Assembly: GCA_013288285.1 (NCBI GenBank)
Contig: JABDCE010000017.1
Coordinates: forward strand, 1-45,242
DNA: 45,242 nucleotides
DNA from: Bacteroidota bacterium
GTDB lineage: Bacteria > Bacteroidota > Bacteroidia > Chitinophagales > Chitinophagaceae
Direction: 5' to 3'
Part shown: piece after piece, positions 9,374 to 27,200 of the stretch
Layout: each line of letters begins with the position of its first letter
Numbering within the stretch: position 1 is the stretch's first letter
Translations under genes and position numbers: made by a program
The notes under the pieces: generated by a model
Database searches by the model: none
Seen by the model: only the letters and a program-made list of their open reading frames with translations
Told to the model about the DNA's origin: nothing

Positions 9374-9398
9374 CCCCAAACCAATATTTTGAAGTAGA

Positions 9399-9431
9399 AA
9401 GCCATGGAGTTTCCGTGGCTTTTTGCTTTTT
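9399..9431 (+). terminator. Intrinsic terminator after the S46 peptidase
   Basis: Stem AAGCCATGG / CCGTGGCTT (9 bp with one T-G wobble), 5-nt loop, then TTTGCTTTTTG. It separates the peptidase gene from the accessory cluster that starts at 9554. Confidence 0.75.
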
Positions 9432-9484
9432 GTCAATAGCCTGTTATCACAAAGAGATAGCTATGAATAGCTGAAACATTTTAT

Positions 9485-9492
9485 TAGCTTTG
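9485..9492 (+). promoter_or_regulatory. Bacteroidota-type -7 box before the STAND cluster
   Basis: TAGCTTTG fits TAnnTTTG and sits 62 bp upstream of the first gene of the four-gene cluster, in an A+T-rich leader (AATAATTAATTAATAG). No clear -33 element. It is the only good candidate between the terminator at 9399 and the ATG. Confidence 0.4.
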
Positions 9493-9553
9493 GATCAGAA
9501 TAAAATAAATAATTAATTAATAGAAGGTAATCTACTAAAATAACCTACTGAAA

Positions 9554-10198
9554 ATGAAACAAATCCGTATTTTTTTAGCCTCCTCTAATGAACTAAAACC
9601 AGAAAGAGACAATTTTGAGATTGAGATATACCGCAAATGCAAGACTTGGTTTGACAGGGGTATTTTTCTTTACTTAGACATTTGGGAAGACCTGTCTGCA
9701 CGAATGGGGGCAAATGGCTCTCAAAGCGAATATGACAAAAAAGTAAAGAGTGCAGATCTGTTCGTTTTGCTGGGGTACACCAAGCTGGGCATGTATACAG
9801 CCGAGGAGTTTGATAATGCTATCGGCCAGTTCAAAGCGACCGACAAGCCATTTATTTTTACCTACTTCAAAAACACCACAGGGCCAGTGGAAGATAGCCT
9901 TACCGCATTCAAAGACAAGCTCTATAAGATGGGCCACTTTATCAGCCCTTTCACTGACTCTAACGATCTGTGGAATCAGTTCAACAAAGAACTGGACCGT
10001 CTGGATGCGGTATCGTTTACGAAAAATGAGCACCCCGAACCAACAGGAGCCGCCGCTATAAATGTTACCGGTAACAGCAACAATGTAATATCAGGAAATA
10101 CGAATAGCACCGTAACTGTAAATACAGGCAATACCAGTACACAGACCGCAGACAAAATATACAACATCAACAGTATTGACAGTGCGAATTTTTCTTAA
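9554..10198 (+). CDS. TIR/DUF4062-like putative effector with Asn-rich tail
   Basis: A 214-aa protein, first gene of the STAND cluster. The N-terminal 155 residues have the layout of DUF4062/TIR-like Rossmannoid domains: a first strand with 'RIFLASSNELKPERDNFE' (5-22), 'YLDIWEDL' (40-47), 'SADLFVLLGYTKLGMYTAEEF' (66-86) and 'KPFIFTYFK' (98-106). The Glu in YTAEEFDNAI occupies the place of the conserved acidic residue that is catalytic in NAD-cleaving TIR domains. Enzymatic activity is therefore plausible but inferred. The tail (about 168-214) is an Asn/Thr/Val-rich segment ('NVTGNSNNVISGNTNSTVTV'), as seen in linkers of effector-associated proteins, ending in DKIYNINSIDSANFS. That end is echoed at the start of the next protein. 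It is separated from the next gene by 15 bp. Family membership is from pattern recognition only. Confidence 0.75.
   Translation: MKQIRIFLASSNELKPERDNFEIEIYRKCKTWFDRGIFLYLDIWEDLSARMGANGSQSEYDKKVKSADLFVLLGYTKLGMYTAEEFDNAIGQFKATDKPFIFTYFKNTTGPVEDSLTAFKDKLYKMGHFISPFTDSNDLWNQFNKELDRLDAVSFTKNEHPEPTGAAAINVTGNSNNVISGNTNSTVTVNTGNTSTQTADKIYNINSIDSANFS
10151..10192 (+). other. Shared peptide motif, copy 1 (C-terminus of TIR-like protein)
   Basis: Encodes DKIYNINSIDSANF, the last residues but one of the TIR-like protein. It aligns without gaps to NKTYNIGQINNATF in the next gene: K, Y, N, I, I, A and F are identical and several others are conservative. The two copies differ at many bases, so this is a conserved peptide and not a recent DNA repeat. 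Confidence 0.6.
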
Positions 10199-10213
10199 AA
10201 AGAGCAGACGATA

Positions 10214-11461
10214 ATGGATACACCAGATAGTGCAGCTCCGGTAGCTGACGGAAACAAAACGTATAACATAGGGCAGATCAACAATGCTACTTTTGTACAG
10301 GAAACAGTGCAAGACCCGCCATTTAATGAAATACTTCTTGACAAGCTGATCAATGCCATAATACCATATAACCCAAAGGCAGAGCAGTTGCTAAGCTGGG
10401 CCGCCGGCCAGGATCCGAAGCCAGATATAAGTAACTACTCCATTTCCATACTCACCTATAGTTTTGTAGGCATCATAGGGATGCAGCTCACCAAGCTCTT
10501 TGCTATAGGTGCGGACTCTAAAAGCAACAGCAGGCGACACGACTATGTAGATATGTGCGTGGTAACTGCCAAAAGAGTGCTACAAATAATCTGCTTTGCC
10601 ATCATCTCTGATCTGTGGAATAAAGAAAAGGGCCACAGGTATGCCCTTACTGATGAACAAACAAAGAAAATTAATAACTTCTTTGTTACCCCTAACGAAC
10701 TGCCCTTAAGAGACTACCTGATACTACTGAGCAACCTGTGCGGTGTGTATGCCGGGAATTCTTTACCACTGCCGATCAGTGAGCTCTCGGCGATAGAAAG
10801 CCAGCTTACTGAGGGAGCGTTTTTTGATGCTTGCTGCAAACTGCAGGATATAAATGCGATCAAGAACACTGACGAAAAATACGCACCTAAAAATTGTATA
10901 GAAGCAGAAACGCAACTATCTGTGATATTGACAGCAGCAAGCTTCCTGGCTGCTTACAAGGTAGTATCGATCAAAAATATCGGTTATGAGGGCTTGCGGA
11001 ATACCGAAGGGCGTTACCTGCATAAATATGTGACACTGGGTCAGGACAGCGATCAGAATATAAACAGCGAGAAGATGAACTATGCCAACAACCCAATAAA
11101 TACAGATTCTGTTTTGCTGTACCGGGTGAGCAACCTGGACGATACTAACCTGTTTCCGGGTGTAAAGGAAACTGACATCATTAATATGTTCCCATTTATA
11201 ATAGACTATAACGCACTAACGGAGGAAACAGAAGGTGTGAAGATATGCTTTTATAGCTGCGTAGACTTACTCAACAATAAGGTCATGACCTATAGCTTCC
11301 TGGACGACAATAGCCCGCAAAAAATTACGTTCACCGACACGCAAGAGAATGACCCGCTGATCAATGATATAATTAAGGGCAAAGGAAAACGTACCGACCT
11401 GAAGTTAGATACTGTGTGGCGCCAGGTGAAGGAAGCGAAAGTAGCGATCATAGGCTCGTGA
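10214..11461 (+). CDS. Unrecognised 415-aa component of the STAND cluster
   Basis: No family recognised. The N-terminus carries NKTYNIGQINNATF (14-27), the counterpart of the C-terminal peptide of the TIR-like protein. Next come a helical region with two hydrophobic stretches (about 76-100, SISILTYSFVGIIGMQL; and 120-135, VLQIICFAIISDLW), which might be buried helices or membrane-associated, and a middle helical part with Leu-rich segments. The C-terminal half (about 235-415) is mixed alpha/beta, with 'EAETQLSVILTAASFLAAYKV' followed by a beta-rich end and a basic helix 'KGKRTDLKLDTVWRQVKEAKV'. No signal peptide, so probably cytoplasmic. The position between effector-like and STAND genes suggests an adaptor or a second effector; that is inference. 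Spacing is 15 bp upstream and 51 bp downstream. Confidence 0.75.
   Translation: MDTPDSAAPVADGNKTYNIGQINNATFVQETVQDPPFNEILLDKLINAIIPYNPKAEQLLSWAAGQDPKPDISNYSISILTYSFVGIIGMQLTKLFAIGADSKSNSRRHDYVDMCVVTAKRVLQIICFAIISDLWNKEKGHRYALTDEQTKKINNFFVTPNELPLRDYLILLSNLCGVYAGNSLPLPISELSAIESQLTEGAFFDACCKLQDINAIKNTDEKYAPKNCIEAETQLSVILTAASFLAAYKVVSIKNIGYEGLRNTEGRYLHKYVTLGQDSDQNINSEKMNYANNPINTDSVLLYRVSNLDDTNLFPGVKETDIINMFPFIIDYNALTEETEGVKICFYSCVDLLNNKVMTYSFLDDNSPQKITFTDTQENDPLINDIIKGKGKRTDLKLDTVWRQVKEAKVAIIGS
10253..10294 (+). other. Shared peptide motif, copy 2 (N-terminus of 415-aa protein)
   Basis: Encodes NKTYNIGQINNATF, residues 14-27 of the 415-aa protein, matching the tail of the preceding TIR-like protein. 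Proposed as a docking or oligomerisation peptide shared by two members of one operon. Confidence 0.6.
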
Positions 11462-11512
11462 CCCGAACAAGGTCGACACAAGTAAGAAGCACTCAATAAA
11501 CTACCCACCTGC

Positions 11513-13351
11513 ATGGACAAAATATACCCATTTAAATTCCTGGATTCTTACGGACAAGATGACAAAGAAGTATTCTTTGGCCGTAAAGCTGAAATAGATG
11601 CGCTTTACGAAATGGTCTTCCAAACCAGTATACTGATGGTGTATGGCGCATCAGGTACCGGAAAGACCAGCCTTATACAATGTGGACTGGCCGGCAGGTT
11701 CAAGTCGCACGACTGGCTGGCGATCTATGTCCGCAGGGGCGATAACCTTAACCGGTCTTTGGATAAAGCACTTGCAGAAAACGGCGCCAACGAAAAAATT
11801 CCGGATTTCGACATATTCAATACTACTAAAACTGCTGCCCCAGTTGCCGAGCTAACACCGCTGGCAAAATCATTCAAAGCTATTTATCTTAAAAATTTCC
11901 GTCCCATCTATCTCATCTTCGACCAGTTTGAAGAATTGTTTGTGATAGGTGATAAGACGGAACAAGAGGAGTTCATTAATACCGTACAGGAAATACTGCG
12001 GCTGGACCAGCCGGTGAAGATGATCTTCAGTATGCGGGAAGAATACCTGGGCAATCTGTTCGAATTTGAAAAGAGTGTACCCCAGCTCATGCGTAAGAAA
12101 TTGCGTGTGGAACCGATGAGCATTGACAAAGTACGGGAAGTGATTAATGGCATTGCAGCACTGAAAGAAACTTCATATGTAACCATAAAGGCTGGTGATG
12201 AAGGTCCCATTACGGAGAGTATCTTTCATAAAATAAAAGACAAAGACAAATCGCTAACTATACAACTCCCCTATCTGCAGGTATTCTTAGACAAACTGTA
12301 CCGCTCAAACACAGACGAAATAAAGCCGGAGGGAGTTCAGTACATCGATACCGAATTTACGAATGAAGCCATTACAAAAATGGGCAACATTGGTGACATA
12401 CTGCGCGACTTTCTTGATGAGCAAGTGGCCAGTGCCAGCAGTAAGCTCAGCAAAAGCGGTAGCCAGACAAGTGAAGATGATATCTGGGACATTCTGTCTC
12501 CGTTAGTGACCTTTGACGGCACGAAGAAACCAATGTCTATGGCAGCGCTACAAAAAGAGCTACCGAAGACAGAAAAGCCCGTTTTGGTTGCAGTAATAAA
12601 ACAATTTAAGGACAACCGGTTGCTGCGGCATACCGAAGAAGGCGATATATATGAACTGGCACATGACGCACTTGCCGGCCAGATAGCCAAAAAACGCTCC
12701 GTGGATGAAAAAGCTCTGATAGAAGTAAGAAGGATACTGACTATGCAGATAAGCCTGAACCAGGCCGGTTCTAATAATGGCATGCCGGAGTTACTGAGTA
12801 AAGCAAGGATGGATATCATTAACCCTTACAAGGATAAGATAACGGATCCAGACGAACTGGCTCTGATAAACGCCAGTAACAAGGCGATACAGAAGCAAAA
12901 AGAAGACGCTTTGGCAGAGGAGCTAGAGAAAAAGAAAAAAAGCAGGCAGCTGATTGCCGGGCTGGCGATCATACTCTCCGTTATGACCGTTTCATTTGTC
13001 TTTTCAATCTCCAAATATGTCGAAGCCAACCACGACAAACTATTAGCGGACACAGCTACGGCTAAAGCTAAATATGCGGAAACAAATGCGACAAAGAAAG
13101 AAGCTGAGACAAAAGAAACTCTGAAAGCACTGGTAAAACAAACAGCAATTTCAAAAGCAAAGGAAAAAGAAAGCTACGGCGACAGCTACCAGGACAATGG
13201 GAATAATGACTACGCACTGCAAATTTATAAAGAGGCTTTAGATTCGATTAAGGCCTATTCCGACGACAGCCTATATAAACAGATAGAACGGAAGAAAAAC
13301 GAATTAACTGTAACAACAACTCAAAGAAGTAGTCAAAAAAGAAAGCCATGA
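11513..13351 (+). CDS. nSTAND-type NTPase with single transmembrane helix
   Basis: A 612-aa STAND-class AAA+-like NTPase, a family of signal-transducing switches that oligomerise on ligand sensing. The opening 'YPFKFLDSYGQDDKEVFFGR' is the usual lead-in of the novel STAND (nSTAND1-like) group. Walker A is GASGTGKTS (45-53), Walker B is IFDQFEELF (135-143), and a downstream 'FSMREEYLG' (172-180) gives the likely sensor arginine. The winged-helix-like end contains 'YELAHDALAGQIAKKR' (380-395). A basic stretch (EKKKKSR, 472-478) precedes one transmembrane helix (about 480-500), so the positive-inside rule places the NTPase in the cytoplasm and the last 110 residues outside. That tail is coiled-coil-like, with a TPR-like end ('NDYALQIYKEALDSIKAY'). 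Its stop overlaps the start of the WD40 gene by 4 bp (ATGA), indicating translational coupling. Confidence 0.88.
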   Translation: MDKIYPFKFLDSYGQDDKEVFFGRKAEIDALYEMVFQTSILMVYGASGTGKTSLIQCGLAGRFKSHDWLAIYVRRGDNLNRSLDKALAENGANEKIPDFDIFNTTKTAAPVAELTPLAKSFKAIYLKNFRPIYLIFDQFEELFVIGDKTEQEEFINTVQEILRLDQPVKMIFSMREEYLGNLFEFEKSVPQLMRKKLRVEPMSIDKVREVINGIAALKETSYVTIKAGDEGPITESIFHKIKDKDKSLTIQLPYLQVFLDKLYRSNTDEIKPEGVQYIDTEFTNEAITKMGNIGDILRDFLDEQVASASSKLSKSGSQTSEDDIWDILSPLVTFDGTKKPMSMAALQKELPKTEKPVLVAVIKQFKDNRLLRHTEEGDIYELAHDALAGQIAKKRSVDEKALIEVRRILTMQISLNQAGSNNGMPELLSKARMDIINPYKDKITDPDELALINASNKAIQKQKEDALAEELEKKKKSRQLIAGLAIILSVMTVSFVFSISKYVEANHDKLLADTATAKAKYAETNATKKEAETKETLKALVKQTAISKAKEKESYGDSYQDNGNNDYALQIYKEALDSIKAYSDDSLYKQIERKKNELTVTTTQRSSQKRKP

Positions 13352-16300
13352 TAAGGATAAGTATACTATTTTTTGTATTGCTGTATATACCTGCAATGGG
13401 ACAAAGCCCTGCATCACGCTACAAAAACGCGATGAGGGAGGGTGACCATTATTTTAAAATCAATAATTATAGCGAGGCGCTAAAGAAATACCAGGATGCA
13501 ATGATAGCGGCAAGAGAATGCCCCGATTGCACAGAGACTGGTAACACCGCAACAACGCCTCATGAGAAAATCGTTCAAGTTTTCGAACAAATTCAAAAGC
13601 AAAAAAACAAGTCCGATAGCCTGGCCAAACGAGCGAAACAAATGTATGAGGTAGCAAAAAATAAATCCAGAATAGCGTCATCCTATGAAGCCTCCGGCAA
13701 GGCATTTATTGCTATCTATAAAAATCATCTGCTTGCAGAGGGGCTAAGACAAGCTGCATCTGCGTACAGTATTGACGATAGTAATATGGATGCAAGAAAT
13801 GCACTTTATGCCAGTGTGTATGAATCGCAAGACAATCCCCACCTTGTATTTCCAATATCAACGGATACGAATAGCCACTTTATAAAATCTGTTATTTTCT
13901 CAAAAAATGGCAAGAAAAAAATAGTATTAAATGACGAGACCAGTTCAGGCAGTTTTGGAGGATCTGGTAACAATGACGATAACGTGAAACCAGTGGGACC
14001 AAAACTTTCAATCCCTTGTCCGGGCAATAAGGAAGTGCTTGTAATAGACGATTCGAACTACGTAAAAAAATGGGATACAGAAACCGGGCAGTATGAGAAT
14101 GACAGCGTTAAACTGTCTAGCGACCTGTCCTGCACATCAGCCGTATTTAGCGGCAATGGAAAAAGTCTCATCACTGCAGGGAATGGTTATCTTAATGTAT
14201 GGGATATGGCTTCCTGGACGTTAATTTCAGACATTAGAATGGATGGCGTTTACACATCCCCAGTTATTTCTGACAACGGGGCAAAAGCTTATGTAACTGT
14301 ATATGATTCTATTAAGGTAATTGACGCACTAACCGGAAAACAAACAAACTCATTTTTAATTGATGCGAATAATCCCCCATCCGCTATTAGCTTTTCGCCT
14401 GATGGCCGGTATTTACTGGTAGCAACAACATATGACACCCTTGACGCAAAAAACACTTCTGCGAAACTTTATGACCTTGAACAAAAAGACATATCTCTGG
14501 TCAGGGATTTCGATAGCCTGGTATTCGCCAGTTATACCCCTGACGGCAGATTTCTGTTCATAGGCCGGTCGGACTCCAGCGCTATACTTTACGACCTTAA
14601 AAAAAATACAGATACTATTAATTTCCTGAACCTTGGAAATGTACCTAACTCGATTATTTTTTCGCCGAACGGGAATAAAATAATACTCACTTTTACCGAC
14701 GAGACAATGGGGATAGGCACTTTATCCAAGGATAAATTCCAACTTTTTAACGGTAATGCTACCGATGCTGTGTTTTCACCAGATAGCAATAAGATCATCA
14801 CCATATACGACAATACTGTAAAACTATGGGATACGGGGAATTACGTTCGTGAAATCGCAACGCTTTCGGGTTCAGAAAATAATATCATAAAAGCAGGTTT
14901 CAGTGCCAACTCCAAAATCGTTTGGGCAATTTCGGACAATAAAGAGATCATACTATGGAACATCGAAAATTTCAACGAGAAAGGAACCTTGTACGGGAAT
15001 TGGGAATCAGCTAATTTTTCGGCTTTTTCAACCGATGGCAACCTGGTTTTTACCCTGCATAGAAATAAAGGGAAAATTGTCAGCGTCACCAACTCAGCCG
15101 ATTCAATTCCTATATTGGGATACATGGCTGCAAATACGAGGGGTGGTTTTTCCCCTGATAGCCGCAGGTTAGTTACCAGAGCATCAGATACCCTAAAAAT
15201 ATGGGACACCAAAACCGGAAAACTGGTGGGGAACCCTATAGGAAACGTTGCCGGCATTTTCAGCCTGGCAGGTTATTCGGCAGACAACAGAAATGTATTC
15301 CTTATTTATGAAGGAAAATTATCTTTGGTAGATGTGGCTGATGGCCGTCGAATACCTATAGACATTAGCGCTGACTCAGTCATATCCGCATCATTTTCAG
15401 CCGACAACCACCACTTAATGGCGCTTCAAAAAAACGGGACATTCAGCATATGGAATATTGATCGCAGCAGCACTCAACCAATTTTTACTACCAGTTGCAT
15501 CTCCGTTCTTTTTTCGCCCGACCGTAAAAGCGCATTACTGAAGTCTTTTTCAAAGGATACTAATTCGACAATGCGCTATAGAATTTCCAAGACCGGAACT
15601 CAGAACAAATCAGACACCTTGGTTGCTTACGTGAATACGGAGATATTGCTTCGGACAACTTTTAAAACCGAAGTTCTGAAGAAAGAGGATACTTTGACTA
15701 TATTCAAAAAATGCGATACTGCTTTTTATTCGCCCGATGGCAGAAGAATACTGGCGTATTCTTCGTCAGGATTCCCAGATGCTGATAACAGTAACGATAA
15801 CCATATTCTGCTCTGGAATATGGAAAACAGCCACAGCCTATTTTTTGAGACCCGTAAATCAAAGTATAATAATTTAAAAATAACAAAACCGTTTTTTTCT
15901 GCTAAAAATGAATTTATTTTTATGTCGGTCAACGACGCTACGGTTATATTTTATGATAACGGGCGGCAGGAAACAGGAACAGCACAATATAATAATCTAA
16001 GGAATGTTGTTTGTTCTCGTGACAATAAATCGTTTTTATGGATAATGGCAGGAGATATTGGCTATTATTTTAACCTTGACAGGGCGGTTAATCCAACGAA
16101 GATATCTCATGTGAGCGATGCTGTCTTTTCCCCCGACAGCAAGTATCTGCTCATTAAGTATTACAACACGTACAGATTGTTTGATACGACCGGTGAATTA
16201 GCAACTCTACCTATAGGAACAGCGCGCAGATATTTCTTTTCGGCTGACAGCAAGCGGATCATCACTCAATACGACAATAAACCGTCTAAGGTATGGCTTA

Positions 16301-16356
16301 TAGATCCCGCAGACATTATTGCGAACCTATATTCAAAATTCGGTCTCAAACATTAA
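13348..16356 (+). CDS. Exported TPR/WD40-repeat protein (putative sensor of the STAND cluster)
   Basis: A 1002-aa protein. A signal peptide (MIRISILFFVLLYIPAMGQ) is followed by a TPR-like pair of helices ('GDHYFKINNYSEALKKYQDAM', about 33-53) and a helical region to about 150. From about 165 to the end there are many WD40-type blades, recognisable by 'VKKWDTETGQ', 'LNVWDMASW', 'VKLWDTGNY', 'IILWNIENF', 'LKIWDTKTGKL', 'FSIWNIDRS' and 'ILLWNMENS', each preceded by an 'FSPDGRRLL'-like strand. The total of about 13-14 blades suggests two beta-propellers. In related single-chain proteins the nSTAND, membrane helix and WD40 parts are fused; here they are split into two overlapping genes. Base composition is visibly more A+T-rich than the core genes. 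The ligand is unknown. Confidence 0.85.
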   Translation: MIRISILFFVLLYIPAMGQSPASRYKNAMREGDHYFKINNYSEALKKYQDAMIAARECPDCTETGNTATTPHEKIVQVFEQIQKQKNKSDSLAKRAKQMYEVAKNKSRIASSYEASGKAFIAIYKNHLLAEGLRQAASAYSIDDSNMDARNALYASVYESQDNPHLVFPISTDTNSHFIKSVIFSKNGKKKIVLNDETSSGSFGGSGNNDDNVKPVGPKLSIPCPGNKEVLVIDDSNYVKKWDTETGQYENDSVKLSSDLSCTSAVFSGNGKSLITAGNGYLNVWDMASWTLISDIRMDGVYTSPVISDNGAKAYVTVYDSIKVIDALTGKQTNSFLIDANNPPSAISFSPDGRYLLVATTYDTLDAKNTSAKLYDLEQKDISLVRDFDSLVFASYTPDGRFLFIGRSDSSAILYDLKKNTDTINFLNLGNVPNSIIFSPNGNKIILTFTDETMGIGTLSKDKFQLFNGNATDAVFSPDSNKIITIYDNTVKLWDTGNYVREIATLSGSENNIIKAGFSANSKIVWAISDNKEIILWNIENFNEKGTLYGNWESANFSAFSTDGNLVFTLHRNKGKIVSVTNSADSIPILGYMAANTRGGFSPDSRRLVTRASDTLKIWDTKTGKLVGNPIGNVAGIFSLAGYSADNRNVFLIYEGKLSLVDVADGRRIPIDISADSVISASFSADNHHLMALQKNGTFSIWNIDRSSTQPIFTTSCISVLFSPDRKSALLKSFSKDTNSTMRYRISKTGTQNKSDTLVAYVNTEILLRTTFKTEVLKKEDTLTIFKKCDTAFYSPDGRRILAYSSSGFPDADNSNDNHILLWNMENSHSLFFETRKSKYNNLKITKPFFSAKNEFIFMSVNDATVIFYDNGRQETGTAQYNNLRNVVCSRDNKSFLWIMAGDIGYYFNLDRAVNPTKISHVSDAVFSPDSKYLLIKYYNTYRLFDTTGELATLPIGTARRYFFSADSKRIITQYDNKPSKVWLIDPADIIANLYSKFGLKH

Positions 16357-16390
16357 AAAAAAGAAAAAAAACTGAGAGTGAAGGTTGCTA

Positions 16391-17119
16391 TTAGAGCGGT
16401 TTTATACTTACTGCCAGGATATTGCAATACCCGTCACCCTGAGCTGTTGCTGTAAGGCTTTTTATTTTCTTCGGCGAACCTACAGGATACAAATAGCAAT
16501 ACAATCCGGGCGCGGTGTAACGTACCTGGAAAAGATTTTTTACGTTGTCTTGCTTTATCACGAAGCGGCTGCCGATCACTGACTCAAAACTTTGGTTATG
16601 AGTGGGCACATACCAGTCTGGAATAGTATCGTTAAAAGCTACGCCCGACATTGTAGAATCATCGGTAAACCGAACAGAATAGGTGATATATGACTCACCA
16701 CTGCCAGAGGTGGCCAACACATAAAATGTATCTGCAGCAATGGGTGTAACAAACTCCAGCGTGCCTTGTGAGTTGTGAAGGGTCAAGGAATTATTGGCAT
16801 TATACGGCGCTAACTTATAAACCAAGCCCGGGAAAAATGTACTATTAACGATACGATCGGCAGGGAAAAAATAGGCAGGCTTGTAACCCATGTAATTAAA
16901 ATCATCGGCCATAAATACACCGCCTACGTTATCTGCCCCGAAATAAGGCGTGCTAGTAATGGTGGACTGAGGGTCTTTTGTTTCGCCATTCACTACTATG
17001 TCGCTATTAAATCCTCTTAATTCTACAGTTTTGTACCCCTGCGAAAAAGCCTTTTCGTTACTGGCTATGACTGAAAGCAAAATACCTATGTGGAAACTTA
17101 ATAAGATTATTTTCTTCAT
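16391..17119 (-). CDS. Secreted protein of unknown function
   Basis: About 242 aa. The Met at 17119 (MKKIILLSFHIGILLSVIAS) is preferred over the one three codons upstream because it gives the usual signal peptide start. The mature part is beta-rich and hydroxyl-rich ('KTVELRGFNSDIVVNGE', 'LTLHNSQGTLEF', 'YITYSVRFTDDST', 'KSLTATAQGDGYCNILAVSIKPL'). This pattern suggests a beta-sandwich or lectin-like fold without a firm family. It is convergent with the WD40 gene (34 bp between stops, no clear terminator) and divergent from the alpha/beta hydrolase. Probably not part of the STAND system, given its orientation. Confidence 0.75.
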   Translation of the reverse strand: MKKIILLSFHIGILLSVIASNEKAFSQGYKTVELRGFNSDIVVNGETKDPQSTITSTPYFGADNVGGVFMADDFNYMGYKPAYFFPADRIVNSTFFPGLVYKLAPYNANNSLTLHNSQGTLEFVTPIAADTFYVLATSGSGESYITYSVRFTDDSTMSGVAFNDTIPDWYVPTHNQSFESVIGSRFVIKQDNVKNLFQVRYTAPGLYCYLYPVGSPKKIKSLTATAQGDGYCNILAVSIKPL

Positions 17120-17241
17120 GCTCTGCATATTGATACAATATAGTCGTTTCGTAGAAACTATGCAACGATTGCCGGGGAAATAATATAGTGATCTCCCCTG
17201 CCGTCAAAAAAATCCGTAAAATTGTAGATCAATCATTAGTT

Positions 17242-18663
17242 ATGTTTCTTAAGGCGGTGTGTACCATTGGTGTGTTCTTCTCAGCTTTGCATTGCAGCGC
17301 TCAAACTTCATTTGCCGGAAGTTGGGAAGGCAAGCTGAACATTGGCACAACGATCAGGCTGGTATTCAATATTAAAGACACCACCGACAACAACTTGTAT
17401 AGTACCATGGACAGCCCCGACCAGGCAGCAATGGACATAGCATGTAGCCATACGGTGGCAAAGGAAGATTCTATATTCATCACCACACTTGGTGGCAGGG
17501 CAAAGTATAGCGGAAAGAAAATTGACGGTAATTATATACTTGGAGAGTTCAGGCAGAACGGGCATAAGCTGACACTGGACTTAAAGAAAACCGATAAAGC
17601 AATTACACTAAACAGGCCGCAGACGCCCAAACCACCGTTTGAATATATCAGCGAGGATGTCGTGTACCACAACGAGCCGAACAATATTCAGTTCGGAGCC
17701 ACGATCACTATACCTCATGGCGCAGGGCCTTTTCCCGCTGTGCTGATGATCACCGGCTCTGGCCAGCAGAACCGCGACGAGGAGTTATTTGGGCACAGGC
17801 CGTTTGCAGTGATAGCGGATTATCTTACTAAAAAAGGGTACATCGTATTGCGGGTAGATGACCGGGGAATTGGAAAATCGACGGGAGAATTCTCAGGAGC
17901 TACCTCAGAAGATTTTAAAAATGATGCGATCGTGAGCCTGAACTATCTGCGGTCGAGAAAGGAAGTAGACCAGAAGAAGATTGGCCTGATGGGACATAGC
18001 GAAGGTGGTATGATAGCACCCATGATAGCCGTGGAAGACAAAGGCGTGGATTTCTTAGTGCTGCTGGCTGCGCCGGGCGTGCCGTGCCTGCAACTGAACG
18101 AGGAGCAATTGGCGGCGTTGTTTGAAAAAAGCGGCGTCAAAAAAGAATCTACTGATGAATACCTGGAGCTATACGAAAAAATGGTAAAGAGCTCGCTTAA
18201 AACGGATGACAAAGAAGAATTCAGAAAACAAGTAAACAAAGAAGTAACAGAGTGGCGGGCAAAGACCCCTTCTTATGTGGTGCTGGAAACAACCAATATC
18301 TCTGATAACCGAAGCCAGGAAAAATTTGTTGACGGCATTGTAAATAAGCTCTCAGACCCGTGGTATAAGTACCTGATCTCTTACAACCCACAACCAACCC
18401 TGAGAAAGCTGTCGTGCAAGGTGCTGGCGCTGAACGGAGAAAAAGACATACAGGTATTGCCCGGCAGCAACCTTGTAGGTGTAAAAGAATGCCTGGATAA
18501 AAGCCATTCGCCAGAGCATGAAACTCTGGAGCTGAAAGGATTGAATCATTTGTTCCAGAGTTGCAAAACATGCAGCTTCCAGGAATATGCACAACTGGAA
18601 GAAACATTCTCGCCTACGGCATTAGCTGCCATATCTGACTGGATGGATAAGAACGTGAAGTAA
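17242..18663 (+). CDS. Exported alpha/beta hydrolase
   Basis: The ORF track begins at a GTG (17188), but the ATG at 17242 gives 473 aa with a normal signal peptide (MFLKAVCTIGVFFSALHCSAQ) and is chosen. An N-terminal beta-rich domain of about 120 residues ('FAGSWEGKLNIGTTIRLVFNI', 'ITLNRP') precedes an alpha/beta hydrolase core. The core has 'LMITGSGQQNRDEE' (oxyanion region), 'LRVDDRGIGKS', the nucleophile elbow GHSEGG (Ser about 253), a likely Asp in NGEKDIQV and the catalytic His in GLNHLF. This two-domain layout is common in periplasmic esterases or peptidase-like hydrolases of Bacteroidota; the substrate cannot be inferred. A helical lid-like insertion (about 285-370) lies between the Ser and the Asp. 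Confidence 0.88.
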   Translation: MFLKAVCTIGVFFSALHCSAQTSFAGSWEGKLNIGTTIRLVFNIKDTTDNNLYSTMDSPDQAAMDIACSHTVAKEDSIFITTLGGRAKYSGKKIDGNYILGEFRQNGHKLTLDLKKTDKAITLNRPQTPKPPFEYISEDVVYHNEPNNIQFGATITIPHGAGPFPAVLMITGSGQQNRDEELFGHRPFAVIADYLTKKGYIVLRVDDRGIGKSTGEFSGATSEDFKNDAIVSLNYLRSRKEVDQKKIGLMGHSEGGMIAPMIAVEDKGVDFLVLLAAPGVPCLQLNEEQLAALFEKSGVKKESTDEYLELYEKMVKSSLKTDDKEEFRKQVNKEVTEWRAKTPSYVVLETTNISDNRSQEKFVDGIVNKLSDPWYKYLISYNPQPTLRKLSCKVLALNGEKDIQVLPGSNLVGVKECLDKSHSPEHETLELKGLNHLFQSCKTCSFQEYAQLEETFSPTALAAISDWMDKNVK

Positions 18664-18674
18664 GACTTTGGACT

Positions 18675-20213
18675 ATGCAAAATATATTTGAAAAAATACT
18701 TAGCCTTTTTAAGCGCTCACGCACTGAAGAATTCATACGTCATAACACAGTATCTGACAAGAGTCATAAAGTTGTGGTCAGCAATGGCACTATCAAAGAA
18801 GTATTTGTTTTTAATTATTTAGGAGACTATTCTGTTCCAACGTTCGGCATTCAGTTCAATACCGATATAGTTGTCAATAGCGAATCTAGTTCCAACCGTG
18901 TTTATTACGTCAATTTGTATAATCTTACTTGTACATGCAAATCATATGAGCATTTAAAAACACTTTACAGCAGTCGACAACCTGGAATATTATGTAAGCA
19001 TCTTTGTAAGACGTTAATTAATCATGCTCAATTATTAGGGCTAAAACTTTGCGAAATATCTTGCATTGAATTAACAATAGGCAAGAAAGCACAGGAGAAG
19101 TATTCACTTTTTTCATACAATAGCCAGGAATTTATTGTTGCGTTTACAAAGGACAAAGGCTGGGTTAATATTTGTAAGGAAGCCTATTGGGGATATTCTC
19201 CATCAGAACAAAGATGGGCAGGTGCTGTTAAGCCCCAGGATGCGGGTATATTCCAAGCATTAGCCAAATATATACTACAGCGAACTACCATACCAACAAC
19301 TTTTAATCTTGAATCTGAAAGTGTAAAACCGTCAACAAGCGAAATTGTCTATCGTAAACGCCAACGCTGGATAAAGTCTATATCTGTAGTACCCGGAGGA
19401 GTTAGAATAAACTTTGAAAGTGATACTGCCCTAACTTTTTTAAATTGTACAACATCCATTATTAATAGTCTTGAGAATGAAATTTTACTAAATCCCAATA
19501 TATCATTAGATATCGCATTAGCTACATTTCTTTTCAAGCATCAAATTAGAGTTAAAGAAATTGAGGAATATTACGACCGTTATAGAAAAAAATATGAAGA
19601 GCGACTGGCAGAAGGTCAGCAGTCGGCAACGGCAATCAAATTTCTGAACATACGACCATTCAAATGCTGTAACAGAGAAATGAGTATTCTCAATGGTTAT
19701 GACAAAGATAGATTGATCTATCTTTTTACATTTAAGGATAGTATTTCTTTCAATAAAGTGAAATTAGTAGAACTTTTAGCTGGGGATGAACAGTTTAAAT
19801 TCAATCTTGCTTTTTATGTTTCACGAGGGCCAAATTCCATCCATAAAAGCAATACTTCTGACCACTATCGAACGAGGTTCCTATCTTTAGTCAAAACTGG
19901 GATAGTAAAACATGGGAGAGCGATAGATAGCAAAGATTTGTTGAAAACTCTTGCCATTAAGGATATAAGAAATATTTTATCTGGCAGTGGTCTAAAATGC
20001 AATACTAAAGAAGAAGGCATAACACATATTATAGGTTTGGATAACTATGAAGTAAAAGTTAAGCCATATCTATCCCAAATTGACGACTATTTTAAATTGA
20101 TGCCATTTCCATTTGAAGTTCCTAATGACTTAAGATCTGTAGTAGAAAGAGATTTAGAATACTACAATTCCATCGCAATTACTACAATAAACTTGACCGA
20201 CAATATTTTTTGA
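18675..20213 (+). CDS. SWIM zinc-finger protein with SAP-like segment
   Basis: A 512-aa protein of unknown function. A SWIM-type zinc finger is visible as CTC (Cys 86, Cys 88) followed after about 18 residues by CKH (Cys 107, His 109), within 'YNLTCTCKSYEHL'. SWIM fingers bind DNA or proteins. Further on, 'KDLLKTLAIKDIRNILSGSG' (about 417-436) resembles a SAP-type helix-turn-helix, another nucleic-acid-binding motif; this is a weaker match. The central part ('WIKSISVVPGGVRINFESDTALTF') could be a beta-rich domain. No signal peptide, so cytoplasmic. The gene starts 11 bp after the hydrolase but is markedly more A+T-rich than its neighbours, with many AAA/ATT/TTA codons. It looks like an insertion of foreign origin and not a long-term operon partner. 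Confidence 0.75.
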   Translation: MQNIFEKILSLFKRSRTEEFIRHNTVSDKSHKVVVSNGTIKEVFVFNYLGDYSVPTFGIQFNTDIVVNSESSSNRVYYVNLYNLTCTCKSYEHLKTLYSSRQPGILCKHLCKTLINHAQLLGLKLCEISCIELTIGKKAQEKYSLFSYNSQEFIVAFTKDKGWVNICKEAYWGYSPSEQRWAGAVKPQDAGIFQALAKYILQRTTIPTTFNLESESVKPSTSEIVYRKRQRWIKSISVVPGGVRINFESDTALTFLNCTTSIINSLENEILLNPNISLDIALATFLFKHQIRVKEIEEYYDRYRKKYEERLAEGQQSATAIKFLNIRPFKCCNREMSILNGYDKDRLIYLFTFKDSISFNKVKLVELLAGDEQFKFNLAFYVSRGPNSIHKSNTSDHYRTRFLSLVKTGIVKHGRAIDSKDLLKTLAIKDIRNILSGSGLKCNTKEEGITHIIGLDNYEVKVKPYLSQIDDYFKLMPFPFEVPNDLRSVVERDLEYYNSIAITTINLTDNIF

Positions 20214-20259
20214 GATAGTTTACTTAACCAAATAAACATGTACGCGGGTGACCCAACAT

Positions 20260-21276: not shown

Positions 21277-24200
21277 TTATTTTTTTACAAATACTTTTGT
21301 GCCGATCTTTATCCCATTGTTGCTAATAACGACCATGTAGACCCCCGGAACGAGGTCATGCACATCTATCACCCCGCTGCCCTGCTCAATTTTGCCTGTA
21401 TAACGTTCCTTACCAGATACATCAAACACTTTTGCAACAACTTCTCCAGGCAAGCTATTTCCCTTCAGTTCTATATTGATACTGGCATCGGCAGGGTTGG
21501 GGAATAAAAGTATCTCCAAATTGCCTGCGGCGTATACAGGCCGTATTGCGGTAGGTACATTATAATAACTCTTCTGCAGGCAACCATTATGCATGGTAAG
21601 TACCCAATAATTCTTCCGCAGGAGATCAGGGGCTGCGCTGGTGTAGTTCTGATTGACGGCACTTTTGATGATCGTTGAATCAAGCGTAAACGCATCGTCA
21701 TACCCCCATTGATAACTTTCAGCCGTATTGTCTGTGCACACAAACTCAGGGGAATAATAGAGCACCGTAACATTCGGAGTCCTGCCCTGCCCTACGGTAA
21801 AGGGGAACACATCAGTGCTGATACAATCGGAACCCGGGAATGACGTAGACAATGTTATAGTGCCTGTACCTGAGGTATTGAAGCTGATGAGACAGTACTG
21901 CCCATCCTTACCGGTGGCGTAAATGTCGGCATTAGCAGCACCCCAGGTGTACTTGCCCCCCTGCGGCAGCAACGAGTCTGTGCCGAAGTTCATATATTCT
22001 GTATTGGCGCACAGCAGGCTATCAGGGTGCGTAGTGATCCGCGTAGGTGGCGCAGTTTGATTGACCGTTATGGTATCACGTGCTACGTCTGTTCCGCAAC
22101 TGTTGGTATAGGTGTACGATATGGTAACGGTAGCTGCTGTTATGCCATTCACCAGACCGATGCTGTCAATGTCGGCGATCTTGTAATCGGCGCTACTCCA
22201 TAGCCCACCACCAATGCTATCGGTGAGCGCAATAGAAGCCCCGGTACAAACTTTCACCGGCCCGTGTATGACACCTGCATAAGGCAATGGGTTGATCTGG
22301 ATACGTGCATTAGCCGTGCCACAGCTATTGACCAGTGAATAAGTAACAACTGCCGTACCGGGATCCACGCCGGTAACAAGCCCGGACGATACATCGACGG
22401 CTGCAATACCCGTATCGCTGCTGCTCCATTGCCCGCCGGGCACCACCTCGGTAAGCAACGACCGAACGCCCTTGCAAAACGTAGTAGTACCTATAAGCGG
22501 CTGCAATACGGGGAATACAGTATCGAGTACCGATATCAAACAATGCGCCGGTGAGGAGTATGTGATGGTCATGGTGCCCATGAATACACCTGTAACGCTG
22601 CCTGAAGTAACGTCGACAACAGCGACCGATGTAGTACTACTGCTCCATGTGCCTCCGGCCAATGAATCGCTCAACATGGTTGTTGATCCCGCGCATAGGT
22701 GTGTCGCCCCGGTTATTATAGATGGGTCAGGGTTAACAGTATATGCCACGGTAGACATACAACCCGTGCCCAGCATATAAGTGATAGTAGTGGTACCTGC
22801 TGAAACGCCAAGAACAGTACCTGAACTAACGACAGCAACGGCAGTGTTACCACTACTCCACCCGCCCCCTGTTGTATCATTAGTCAGCAATGTAACCAGC
22901 CCGGCGCAAACATTTGTAATGCCTTTTATTGGTGCGGGTAAAGGATTTACAGTTACTACTGTACTTGCCTTGCAACCGGTATTGAAGGTGTAAGAAATGG
23001 TATCTGTACCCGGAGCCGAACCGGAGAACATACCGGTACTTCGGTTGATCGTTGCAACAACTGTATTGTGTGAAGTCCATGCGCCACCGGCATCTGCATC
23101 GCTGAGTGTGGTCTTATCCTTATTACAGATAACCGACAGCCCCACGATAGGCGCTGGTGATGAATTGACTGTTACCGGCTGCGTGACCTGGCAACCCGTG
23201 GAGAAACTATAGGTGATCATTGCTGTACCAGCCGATACACCAGAAACAATTCCCGACCCGGCATCAACAATCGCAGTAACTGTATTGCTACTATTCCAGC
23301 CACCGCCGGTTGCAGCATCACTTAGTGCAGTGGTTAGGCCTGTGCAAACACTGTCTATACCACTTATGGCGACCGGCATCGGGTTAACCGTTATCTCAGA
23401 GGTAGCAAAGCAGCCTGTAGGAGCAGTATAACTGATGGTTGTAGTACCAGCAATCAGGCTGGTCACAATTCCCGAACCCGGATCTACTGTAGCGACAACA
23501 GTATTGGCAGAGGTCCACGTTCCACCGGCAGCGTCAGACAGGGCTATTGAGTACCCAGCGCATACCACATTAGGGCCGGTTATAGGGGTGGTCAACTGGC
23601 CTACAGTAACTACCTGGGTAATGCCGCATCCCGTTGGTAACGTATAGGTGATGGTAGCTGTTCCGAAAGCGCTGCCCGATACTATGCCCAACGATGGGTC
23701 TACCGTGGCTATAGATGTATTGCTGCTGCTCCATGCACCACCATTGGTAGCATCTGACAATGTAGTAGTATATCCTACACAGATATGCGGGTCTCCGGAA
23801 ATAGCCAACGGCAGGCTGTTCACAGTAACTGTTGTAGAGGCCTTACAACCTCCCACATCAGCATAGGTTATGGTAGCCGTTCCGCTTTTTATGCCGGAGA
23901 CAATGCCAGTTCCTACACCGACGGTAGCAATTGTAGTATTTGCAGTATTCCATGATCCTGCGCCTGCAGGGTCGCTTAGCGACGTAGTGGCACCCGCACA
24001 TACACTCATGACGCCTGTTACGGCGGCGGGCAAGGTGTCAACGGTGACAGATGTGGTGAGAATACACCCCGCTGTGTTGGTATAGCTGATCGTGGCAGTA
24101 CCAGCGGCCTGTCCTGTAACCTTTCCTGTACCTAATGTGACCGTTGCAACTGTTGTATTTCCACTCGACCATGCACCACCGGTCGGCGCATCTGTAAGGG

Positions 24201-27200
24201 AAGCAACGGAGCCAAGACAAACATCTGACGGGCCTGTAATAGGAGTCACAGGCGCGGTTACCGTAATTATTTTTGATACATTGCAGCCAGTGTTGAGCGA
24301 ATAGATAATGGCAACCAATCCGGTGGCGACACCCGTGACAACACCTGTGCCAGGCCCCACAACGGCAAGGGACGTACTGCTTGTTGTCCAGTTGCCGCCA
24401 GCTACCGCATCAGTGAGCACTATGGCGCCGCCTATACATACCGCAGAAAGCCCGGTAATGAGTTTTGGCGACTGGTCTACGATAATATTGCTGTCTACAA
24501 AACAACCGCCTGTCAACTGGTAAGTGATCGATGCAGTACCGGGATTAACCCCTGTAACAATTCCCGAACCCGACCCTATAGACGCAATAGAGGCATCGCT
24601 GCTGGACCAGGTACCACCTGATGCTATATCACTAAAAGTATTAGTGAATCCCTGGCAGATACGCAGCGATCCTTTGATAGCAGGAGGAATAGCATTTACC
24701 GTAGTGATCATGGAACTGCTGCAACCCGATGGGAGTGTATACAAAATCGTTGTTGATGCCGGGGATACCGTATTGGCAAAACCGGTAGTACCGTCTATGG
24801 TCATAACCGAGGTGTTTGCGCTACTCCACACCCCCCCGGAAGACGTATCAGTAAACGTGCCGGTCTGTCCTAAACAGATGCCTGCCGGGCCCGAGACAGG
24901 GCCAGGCAATGGACTGACCACTACATTTTTGGTGATACTTAATTTACAGCCTGCTGCATTGCCCACAGTAAGCGTTACGGCGTGGGTACCGGCAACTGTA
25001 TAGGTGTAAGCCGGATTATTTAATGTGCTGGTAGCGCCTGTGCCAAAGCTCCATTTCCACGAATTCAACGGAGTAAGATAGGTAGTAGATGAGTCAAGAA
25101 ATGCTGTACTGGTGTTGAGGCAGGCATGGTGCGGAGAAAATGTAAAACCAGGAACGAGTGTATCGATCCTGATGGTATCTGCACCAAGGCTAAAGCTGCT
25201 GCATCCTTTTGCCGTATCTGTCAGTATCAGCTTTGGAATATAGGCGCCGAGAGCATACCGGTGAGTGATGGTAGTGGATGTGGTAGGGCCGGCAGTAGTT
25301 CCATCGCTGAAATCCCACGTAATGTTCAATGACCCTGATATCGTGGCTTTGAACGTTACAGGAGTAGATGAGCATGCTGATAATGGAGTATATGTGAATG
25401 CAGCTGACGACACACCAATGCTTACATTGCCTATAGCTGTATCCGTACACCCTGCTGTATTAACCACTTGCAATTTCACCCTGTAAGCGCCGGGCACTGT
25501 GTAGATATCGCCGGGGTTATTATTAGTGGAATGTGCACCATCCCCGAAAGACCATTGGTAAGACGAAGCGCCCGTACTGGTATTAATAAAATTCACTGTC
25601 AGCGGAGGACAGATGGCAAACGAGTCGTCCATGTGAAATGATGCAACGGGCAGTGAGTTCACAGTGATGTAACCGGCTTGCGTCATGGTATCGGTGCAAC
25701 CCAGTGCGTTTGTCGCAACCAGCTTTACGGTATATACTCCCGGCGCTATGTATCTATGGCTTGGCAATGCCAGGGTTGTAGTGGCGCCATCACCAAACAT
25801 CCATAAATAACTGACGGCTCCGGAAGAAGTATTGTTAAAGTTGATGTTGGTGTTGACGCAGATATACTGGCTGCTTGCAGAAAACGAAGCTGACGGTTTG
25901 CTCACTGTTGGGTGCGAAGCACTCGTGAACGTATCCATACAGCCTACATTATCTGTCACAATCTCCTGCACCGTAAATGCCCCCGAAGCAAGATAAGTAT
26001 GAGATGTAAGCGGAGCAGATAAGGCCAGCGAACTGCCATCGCCGTAAGTCCAGCTATATTTGGATATAAATGCACCTGCAACGTCTGTGGTTGCATCTGT
26101 AAACTTAACAGGTAACGGCGAACAACCGGTGCCCGGCGTAAACGTATAGTTTGCCACGGGTTTAGCCACTAAAATACTTTGTGATGCGGTATCAAAGCAT
26201 CCGTTGTTATCCGTGAGTATCAGCGTCACAGTGTCTAATCCCCTGCGCGAAAATGTGTGGTACACTGAGTCATACATTTTTGACGCGATTACAATATAAG
26301 GTATATGCGTGTCGGTAAGCACCCCATTCAGATACCACGCTGCCTTTGCTGCTGAAACTTCTACAATTCCTCCAGGTCCTACATAAGTGTTGATATTTGC
26401 ACCAATTGAGTCAACAGCATCGCGGCAGATGCTTGTTTTGTAAGGCTTGAAGGAGACAGACAGCCGCTCAAGGTATATATTCTGATAGCTGGTGTCCCGG
26501 CAGCCGTTCGTAGTATTATCAGTAGTGAGTGTTACAGTGTATGTGGATAGTGCAGGAAAAGAATGAGAAGGGTTTAATACCGTAGATGTAGTCCCATCTC
26601 CAAAGCTCCACAGGTGGTTATTGTCTGTATTTGCTGTGTCATAAAAATTAACCACATTGTCTGGTATGCACGCATACGTATAGTTAATTGTGGCGCCGGG
26701 CGCGTCAGCCGTATCATTCAACATTGCGGCAGGGCCCCCGCAACCATTGTAGTAAGCTATAAGAGTGGGATTATAGACGCCAGGCGTTTTATAAATCTGT
26801 ACAGGATTCGCCACGATGCTGTGGTTACCATCCGCAAAATCCCACTGATAACCATTGATAAGCCCTGTAGACGTAGACGTAAATGTGACCGGCTGCCCGG
26901 TACATTCGCGGCTCCGCGACATAGTAAACGAATTAACGGGCGGCACTGCACCGGTACTTACCGAATCTACGCCACTGGCTACGCAGCCGTTAGTGGTGCG
27001 GATATTGCAAGTAACCGGGTATACCCCCTGCGCCGTATAGGTATGTACCGGTGATGAAAGCGTAGACGTAGTACCATCACCAAAATCCCATGCATATGTA
27101 GCAATACCGTAAGGATAGGGGTAATTGACCAGGTTTGACGGCGGGAATGAAGCGAAAGGTGTGTATACCAACGCAGCAAGCGATGCCGAGTAAGTTACGG

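What the first reader, a model, noticed from the sequence alone, without database searches (positions are those of the whole stretch)
18675..20213. SWIM zinc finger combined with a SAP-like segment
The CxC...CxH finger near residues 86-109 is clear. A SAP-like helix pair near 417-445 would add a second nucleic-acid-binding motif, while the centre is unassigned. The gene sits alone in foreign-looking DNA next to a STAND cluster, so a role in mobile-element or defence biology is possible.
Basis: partly seen in the sequence, partly recalled or inferred. Interest (0 to 1): 0.5.

Follow-up and report, generated by a model that had tools for sequence, protein, structure and literature searches.

The report
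Rare SWIM-finger and FAN1-like SAP protein
A rare, horizontally acquired bacterial gene encodes a probable DNA-binding protein that joins a SWIM zinc finger to a module folded like the DNA-gripping part of the FAN1 repair nuclease, but without a nuclease; its relatives sit on mobile elements, in a defence island or beside the recombination gene rmuC.

Summary
The observation largely holds. ORF 18675-20213 (+, 512 aa) carries a conserved CxC-x18-CxH SWIM finger (C86, C88, C107, H109). The SAP-like segment gives no sequence-profile signal, but two AlphaFold models predict a winged-helix/SAP-type helix-loop-helix (residues 399-475, pLDDT about 85-92). For the C-terminal model (residues 228-512) the six best PDB matches are all human FAN1 structures (E 0.01-0.3, probability 0.77-1.0), with bacterial paFAN1 behind. 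The centre starts with a KTSC-like beta-meander. No nuclease domain was found. The gene has 33.9% GC against about 46.5% for its flanks and is absent from 30 congeners. One full-length homologue is known (50% identity), in a low-GC island with two DUF262/GmrSD genes, an ImmA/IrrE regulator and a serine recombinase. Its C-terminal module recurs in membrane-anchored Bacteroidota proteins: two lie directly beside rmuC, two in prophage-like regions. A SWIM-only relative shares an integrase element with a BRCT gene. Best explanation: a non-catalytic DNA-binding adaptor of mobile or defence DNA, probably membrane-peripheral through an N-terminal amphipathic helix. A fixed DUF262-DUF262-SWIM/SAP system is not supported: two plasmid DUF262 pairs lack the third gene.

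The parts
18675..20213 (+). SWIM/KTSC-like/FAN1-like-SAP protein gene, 512 aa
   Evidence: Open frame; full-length 513-aa homologue L010:9194-10735, 50% identity end to end; GC 33.9%.
18684..18716 (+). N-terminal amphipathic helix, residues 4-14 (IFEKILSLFKR)
   Evidence: Hydrophobic moment at the 99.8th percentile of the protein, likewise in L010; five of six complete C-terminal relatives have a transmembrane helix at the same end. Membrane association is inferred.
18930..19001 (+). SWIM zinc finger C86-x-C88...C107-x-H109
   Evidence: Pfam SWIM sub-threshold; ligands invariant in L010 and L003.
19101..19223 (+). Post-SWIM conserved block, residues 143-183 (YSLFS...FIVAFTK..WVNI..YWGYSP..RWAG)
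   Evidence: Conserved in L010 and recognisable in L003; no family assigned.
19368..19490 (+). KTSC-like beta-beta-beta-alpha unit, residues 232-272
   Evidence: AF2 model of 228-512; Foldseek BFVD best hits are phage KTSC-domain proteins, probability 0.94-0.97, E 0.17-0.24; weak, and the matched residues are not printed, so the placement is inferred from the short aligned length and the secondary structure.
19839..20099 (+). FAN1-like winged-helix + SAP module, residues 389-475
19956..20036 (+). SAP helix-loop-helix, residues 428-454 (IKDIRNILSGSGLKCNTKEEGITHIIG region)
   Evidence: Helices 428-435 and 445-454 in the model; no SAP profile hit.
9374..20259 (.). Strain-specific segment between conserved S46-peptidase and metF genes that contains the finding
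   Evidence: NTP-transferase/DUF445/S46 block and metF are conserved in congeners; none of the genes in between is found at those places.

Best explanation
A horizontally acquired accessory gene encodes a non-catalytic DNA-binding adaptor. The FAN1-like winged-helix/SAP module (residues about 389-475) grips DNA, possibly at ends, flaps or branches as in FAN1. The SWIM finger and the block after it add a second nucleic-acid or protein contact, and the N-terminal amphipathic helix places the protein at the inner membrane, as the transmembrane helix does in sister proteins. The protein would hold or recognise foreign or replicating DNA there and pass it to a nuclease supplied in trans (a DUF262/DUF1524 restriction enzyme in L010, RmuC in two sister proteins). 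Shown: architecture, rarity, foreign origin, neighbourhoods. Inferred from predicted fold: DNA binding. Inferred only: membrane location, partner nuclease, anti-phage or element-maintenance role.
For: SWIM ligands conserved across diverged proteins. FAN1 is the top PDB match of two AF2 models. In FAN1 the SAP domain is the DNA-binding part and the nuclease lies in a separate VRR module (PMC12078616), which is absent here. The C-terminal module recurs in membrane-anchored proteins. Two of these are immediate neighbours of rmuC in distant genera: G163 with RmuC 59 bp upstream and G1402 with RmuC 35 bp downstream. RmuC domains serve the Shield anti-phage system (PMC10270631). Full-length homologue in a low-GC DUF262 / ImmA-IrrE / serine-recombinase island. 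Other relatives in prophage-like regions and on an integrase element. The gene is rare and compositionally foreign.
Against: No SAP or FAN1 profile hit by sequence. Foldseek E-values are only 0.01-0.3, the alignments have 7-8 rows and the full-length model averages pLDDT 47. Only one full-length homologue is known, so its neighbourhood is a sample of one, and related DUF262 pairs occur without it. No nuclease gene lies next to the window copy. The amphipathic helix could be a simple packing helix.
Confidence: 0.42

Rival explanations
1. It is the third gene of a DUF262-DUF262-SWIM/SAP restriction system: the SWIM/SAP protein is the DNA-sensing subunit for the GmrSD-like pair, and the window carries an orphaned copy.
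For: In L010 the three genes are co-directional with gaps of 6 and 19 bp, at similar low GC (0.363-0.39), followed by an ImmA/IrrE regulator.
Against: Two Bacteroidota plasmids with related DUF262 pairs have no SWIM/SAP gene next to them. The window copy has no DUF262 neighbour.
Confidence: 0.12
2. It is a DNA-repair or recombination accessory protein of mobile elements rather than a defence protein. SWIM and FAN1-like SAP domains would help branched DNA of an element survive, with RmuC or BRCT proteins as partners.
For: RmuC neighbours; the SWIM-only relative is coupled to a BRCT gene on an integrase element; the SAP fold is of the FAN1 repair type.
Against: The RmuC neighbours belong to the membrane-anchored sister proteins, not to the SWIM form; the BRCT neighbour belongs to a protein of which only the SWIM half is seen, at a contig end.
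Confidence: 0.28
3. It is a degenerate or selfish cargo gene with no role in the present host.
For: Single copy, very rare, low GC, no partner genes adjacent.
Against: Full-length open frame; 50% identity to L010 with all zinc ligands and many C-terminal motifs intact, as expected under purifying selection.
Confidence: 0.15

Closest known systems
FAN1 (Fanconi-associated nuclease 1), SAP/winged-helix region
   Same: Best PDB fold match for the C-terminal module in both models; in FAN1 the SAP domain binds DNA (PMC12078616).
   Different: No TPR or VRR nuclease module found here; no FAN1_HTH Pfam hit for the protein; SWIM and KTSC-like parts are not among the FAN1 domains described in that paper.
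SWIM zinc-finger proteins (PF04434)
   Same: CxC-x18-CxH finger with conserved ligands.
   Different: Score below the family cut-off (15.2 against 19.6 bits); fused to a FAN1-like SAP module, a pairing for which no bacterial paper was found in the held library.
Membrane-anchored C-terminal relatives in Bacteroidota (unnamed; G163, G969, G1402, G1027, L008, L009)
   Same: Share residues about 228-512, including the wHTH/SAP part.
   Different: Transmembrane or short amphipathic N-terminus instead of SWIM, and an extra C-terminal CxC...HIGCNC-type motif that the window protein lacks.
GmrSD/DUF262 type IV restriction (neighbour in L010)
   Same: Adjacent genes in the only full-length homologue's locus.
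   Different: The window protein has no DUF262 or DUF1524 domain; the DUF262 pair exists without it.

Membership tests
SWIM zinc finger (PF04434) | CxC...CxH zinc-ligand pattern | tested here: met
   C86, C88, C107, H109; invariant in L010 and L003.
SWIM zinc finger (PF04434) | Profile score above the curated cut-off | tested here: not met
   15.2 bits against 19.6; L010 16.0.
SAP domain | Sequence-profile match to Pfam SAP | tested here: not met
   No hit at E<=10 for P0001, the 50-aa segment or relatives.
SAP domain | Helix-extended loop-helix fold | tested here: met
   Helices 428-435 and 445-454, pLDDT about 90, inside a FAN1 match. Predicted structure, not solved.
SAP domain | Binds DNA | not testable with these tools
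   Needs a binding assay.
FAN1 nuclease family | VRR nuclease domain | tested here: not met
   No such Pfam hit; the protein ends 37 residues after the SAP module.
FAN1 nuclease family | SAP/winged-helix region of FAN1 type | tested here: inconclusive
   Foldseek probability 0.99-1.00 but E 0.01-0.035 and query TM about 0.3 for ranks 1-5; PF21315 not hit.
Known anti-phage defence protein | Match to a PADLOC model | tested here: not met
   No hit for P0001 or its L010 homologue.
DUF262-SWIM/SAP three-gene system | Third gene present beside related DUF262 pairs | tested here: not met
   Present in L010, absent in NZ_CP091789 and NZ_CP137560. Sample of three.

The most novel reading that the evidence does not exclude
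The window protein and its membrane-anchored sisters form an undescribed Bacteroidota family of membrane-proximal FAN1-type SAP adaptors that capture DNA at the cell envelope and hand it to a partner nuclease (RmuC, DUF262/DUF1524), as a new kind of anti-phage or anti-plasmid module.
Probability: 0.17. Interest if true: 0.65.

Novelty: new variant of a known kind. Interest (0 to 1): 0.4.

Why it matters
It would add a FAN1-type DNA-gripping module without a nuclease to bacterial mobile and defence DNA, in both a SWIM-fused and a membrane-tethered form. The rmuC neighbourhoods give a concrete partner to test. None of the family libraries searched (Pfam, NCBIfam, PADLOC, PHROGs) names the full protein.

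Tried and rejected
1) SAP by sequence: Pfam on the whole protein, segments and relatives, and PDB profile searches: nothing. 2) Weak PDB sequence-profile hits (a DEAD-box helicase C-terminus 2z0m, BRG1 bromodomain) rejected: not reproduced by Foldseek. 3) PHROGs: no hit for the window protein or L010; only weak hits for relatives. 4) Relatives of the protein in plasmids, phages and IMG/VR: none found. 5) An operon link to the STAND cluster: rejected, two unrelated genes lie between and L010 shows no STAND gene. 6) A fixed DUF262 system: weakened. 7) FAN1_HTH search in Bacteroidota to get sequences for a profile-profile test: nothing rang, controls included, so uninformative. 8) First C-terminal alignment including L003 misplaced its SWIM part; redone without it.

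Full report
WHAT IS THERE. The ORF at 18675-20213 (+) encodes 512 aa. Its GC content is 33.9%, against 46.5% for the hydrolase gene before it, 46.6% for metF after it, and 46-47% for the outer parts of the window. It starts 11 bp after an alpha/beta-hydrolase gene on the same strand and ends 46 bp before metF, which is on the other strand.

SWIM FINGER. C86-x-C88-x18-C107-x-H109 matches Pfam SWIM below the cut-off (E 0.016). The ligands are invariant in the 50%-identical homologue L010 (E 0.0092) and in the distant L003 of genome G441. Shuffled versions of the protein contain such a motif in 0.1% of trials. A block after the finger (residues 143-183) is conserved with it.

SAP-LIKE SEGMENT. 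No sequence profile sees a SAP domain. AlphaFold2 on 7 aligned sequences gave a poor full-length model (mean pLDDT 47) but a confident island at residues 400-475. Foldseek against the PDB put human FAN1 first (probability 0.95, E 0.12) with three bacterial paFAN1 chains in the first ten. A second model of residues 228-512 on 8 sequences reached mean pLDDT 71.7, and about 85-92 over residues 399-475; its six best PDB matches are all human FAN1 (4ric, 4rea, 8s5a, 9eo1; probability 0.77-1.00, E 0.01-0.32), with paFAN1 behind. The SAP helices are at 428-435 and 445-454. The paper on 9eo1/8s5a describes FAN1 as a DNA-binding SAP domain, a TPR domain and a VRR nuclease (PMC12078616); no nuclease module was found here. 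The start of the centre (232-272) is a three-strand meander plus helix; the best viral matches of the model are KTSC-domain proteins (probability 0.94-0.97, E about 0.2), which by size and secondary structure fit that stretch. These are weak-to-moderate fold matches and should be read so.

FAMILY. The gene is single-copy in its genome. Searching 299 genomes of the family, 399 of the order, 396 of the phylum and 395 of the class gave only partial relatives. A scan of 84,980 species genomes with a C-terminal alignment, using only two short peptide patterns, found three loci, one of them full-length: L010, 513 aa, a Sphingobacteriales MAG. No relative was found in plasmids, phages or IMG/VR. The C-terminal module (residues about 228-512) also occurs in proteins of 397-590 aa from G163, G969, G1027, G1402, L008 and L009. 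Five of these six begin with a transmembrane helix and the sixth (G163) with a short amphipathic stretch, and all six end in a cysteine-rich motif of the type CxC...H(I/V)GC(N/K/T)C that the window protein lacks. The SWIM forms instead begin with a strongly amphipathic helix (99.8th percentile moment in both).

NEIGHBOURHOODS. L010: two DUF262/GmrSD genes directly upstream (gaps 6 and 19 bp), an HTH-ImmA/IrrE gene and a serine recombinase downstream, then a gene read by eye as dnaA; island GC 36-42%. G163: RmuC ends 59 bp upstream. G1402: RmuC starts 35 bp downstream. G969: S24 repressor nearby and an MmeI-like methyltransferase. L009: ORF6N and D12 methyltransferase, prophage-like. G441 (SWIM only, cut by the contig end): 6 bp after a BRCT gene, on an element with integrase, HTH_17 and AAA_25 ATPase. 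Control: the two plasmid DUF262 pairs examined have no such gene beside them.

GENOMIC SETTING. In congeners the S46-peptidase gene (with DUF445 and NTP-transferase upstream where the contig shows it) and metF are conserved, but none of the intervening window genes was found at those places in the 16 stretches compared. Whether S46 and metF were once adjacent was not shown. No tRNA was found in the window.

INFERENCE. A DNA-binding, non-catalytic adaptor on mobile DNA is the simplest reading. Partner nuclease, membrane location and a defence role are inferences. The association with DUF262 rests on one locus and the one with RmuC on two loci of the membrane-anchored form; the latter was noticed after the fact.

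Noticed in passing
L005:7173-10048 and L069:10282-12755: Membrane-anchored sister proteins lie directly next to rmuC on the same strand in two distant genera, in opposite gene order.
   Followed up: partly
window 9554-16356: Four co-directional genes: a 214-aa protein that looks DUF4062/TIR-like by eye (no Pfam hit), a 415-aa unknown, an nSTAND1 NTPase (E 2.8e-43) and a 1002-aa WD40 protein; a likely STAND-type defence cluster.
   Followed up: no
L007:3-971: BRCT protein coupled (6 bp gap) to a SWIM protein on an integrase element.
   Followed up: partly
L010:401-3631: Group of minus-strand genes incl. a transglutaminase-like protein (DUF553, E 0.008, sub-threshold) upstream of the defence island; possibly a provirus remnant.
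   Followed up: no
L072:3692-9115 and L073:4099-8277: Paired DUF262 genes on Bacteroidota plasmids, one with WYL and 3'-5' exonuclease genes upstream; a recurrent two-gene cassette.
   Followed up: no
window 21277-28647: 2456-aa minus-strand protein with many repeated PKD-like and Ig-like units and a C-terminal sorting-type end (by eye).
   Followed up: no
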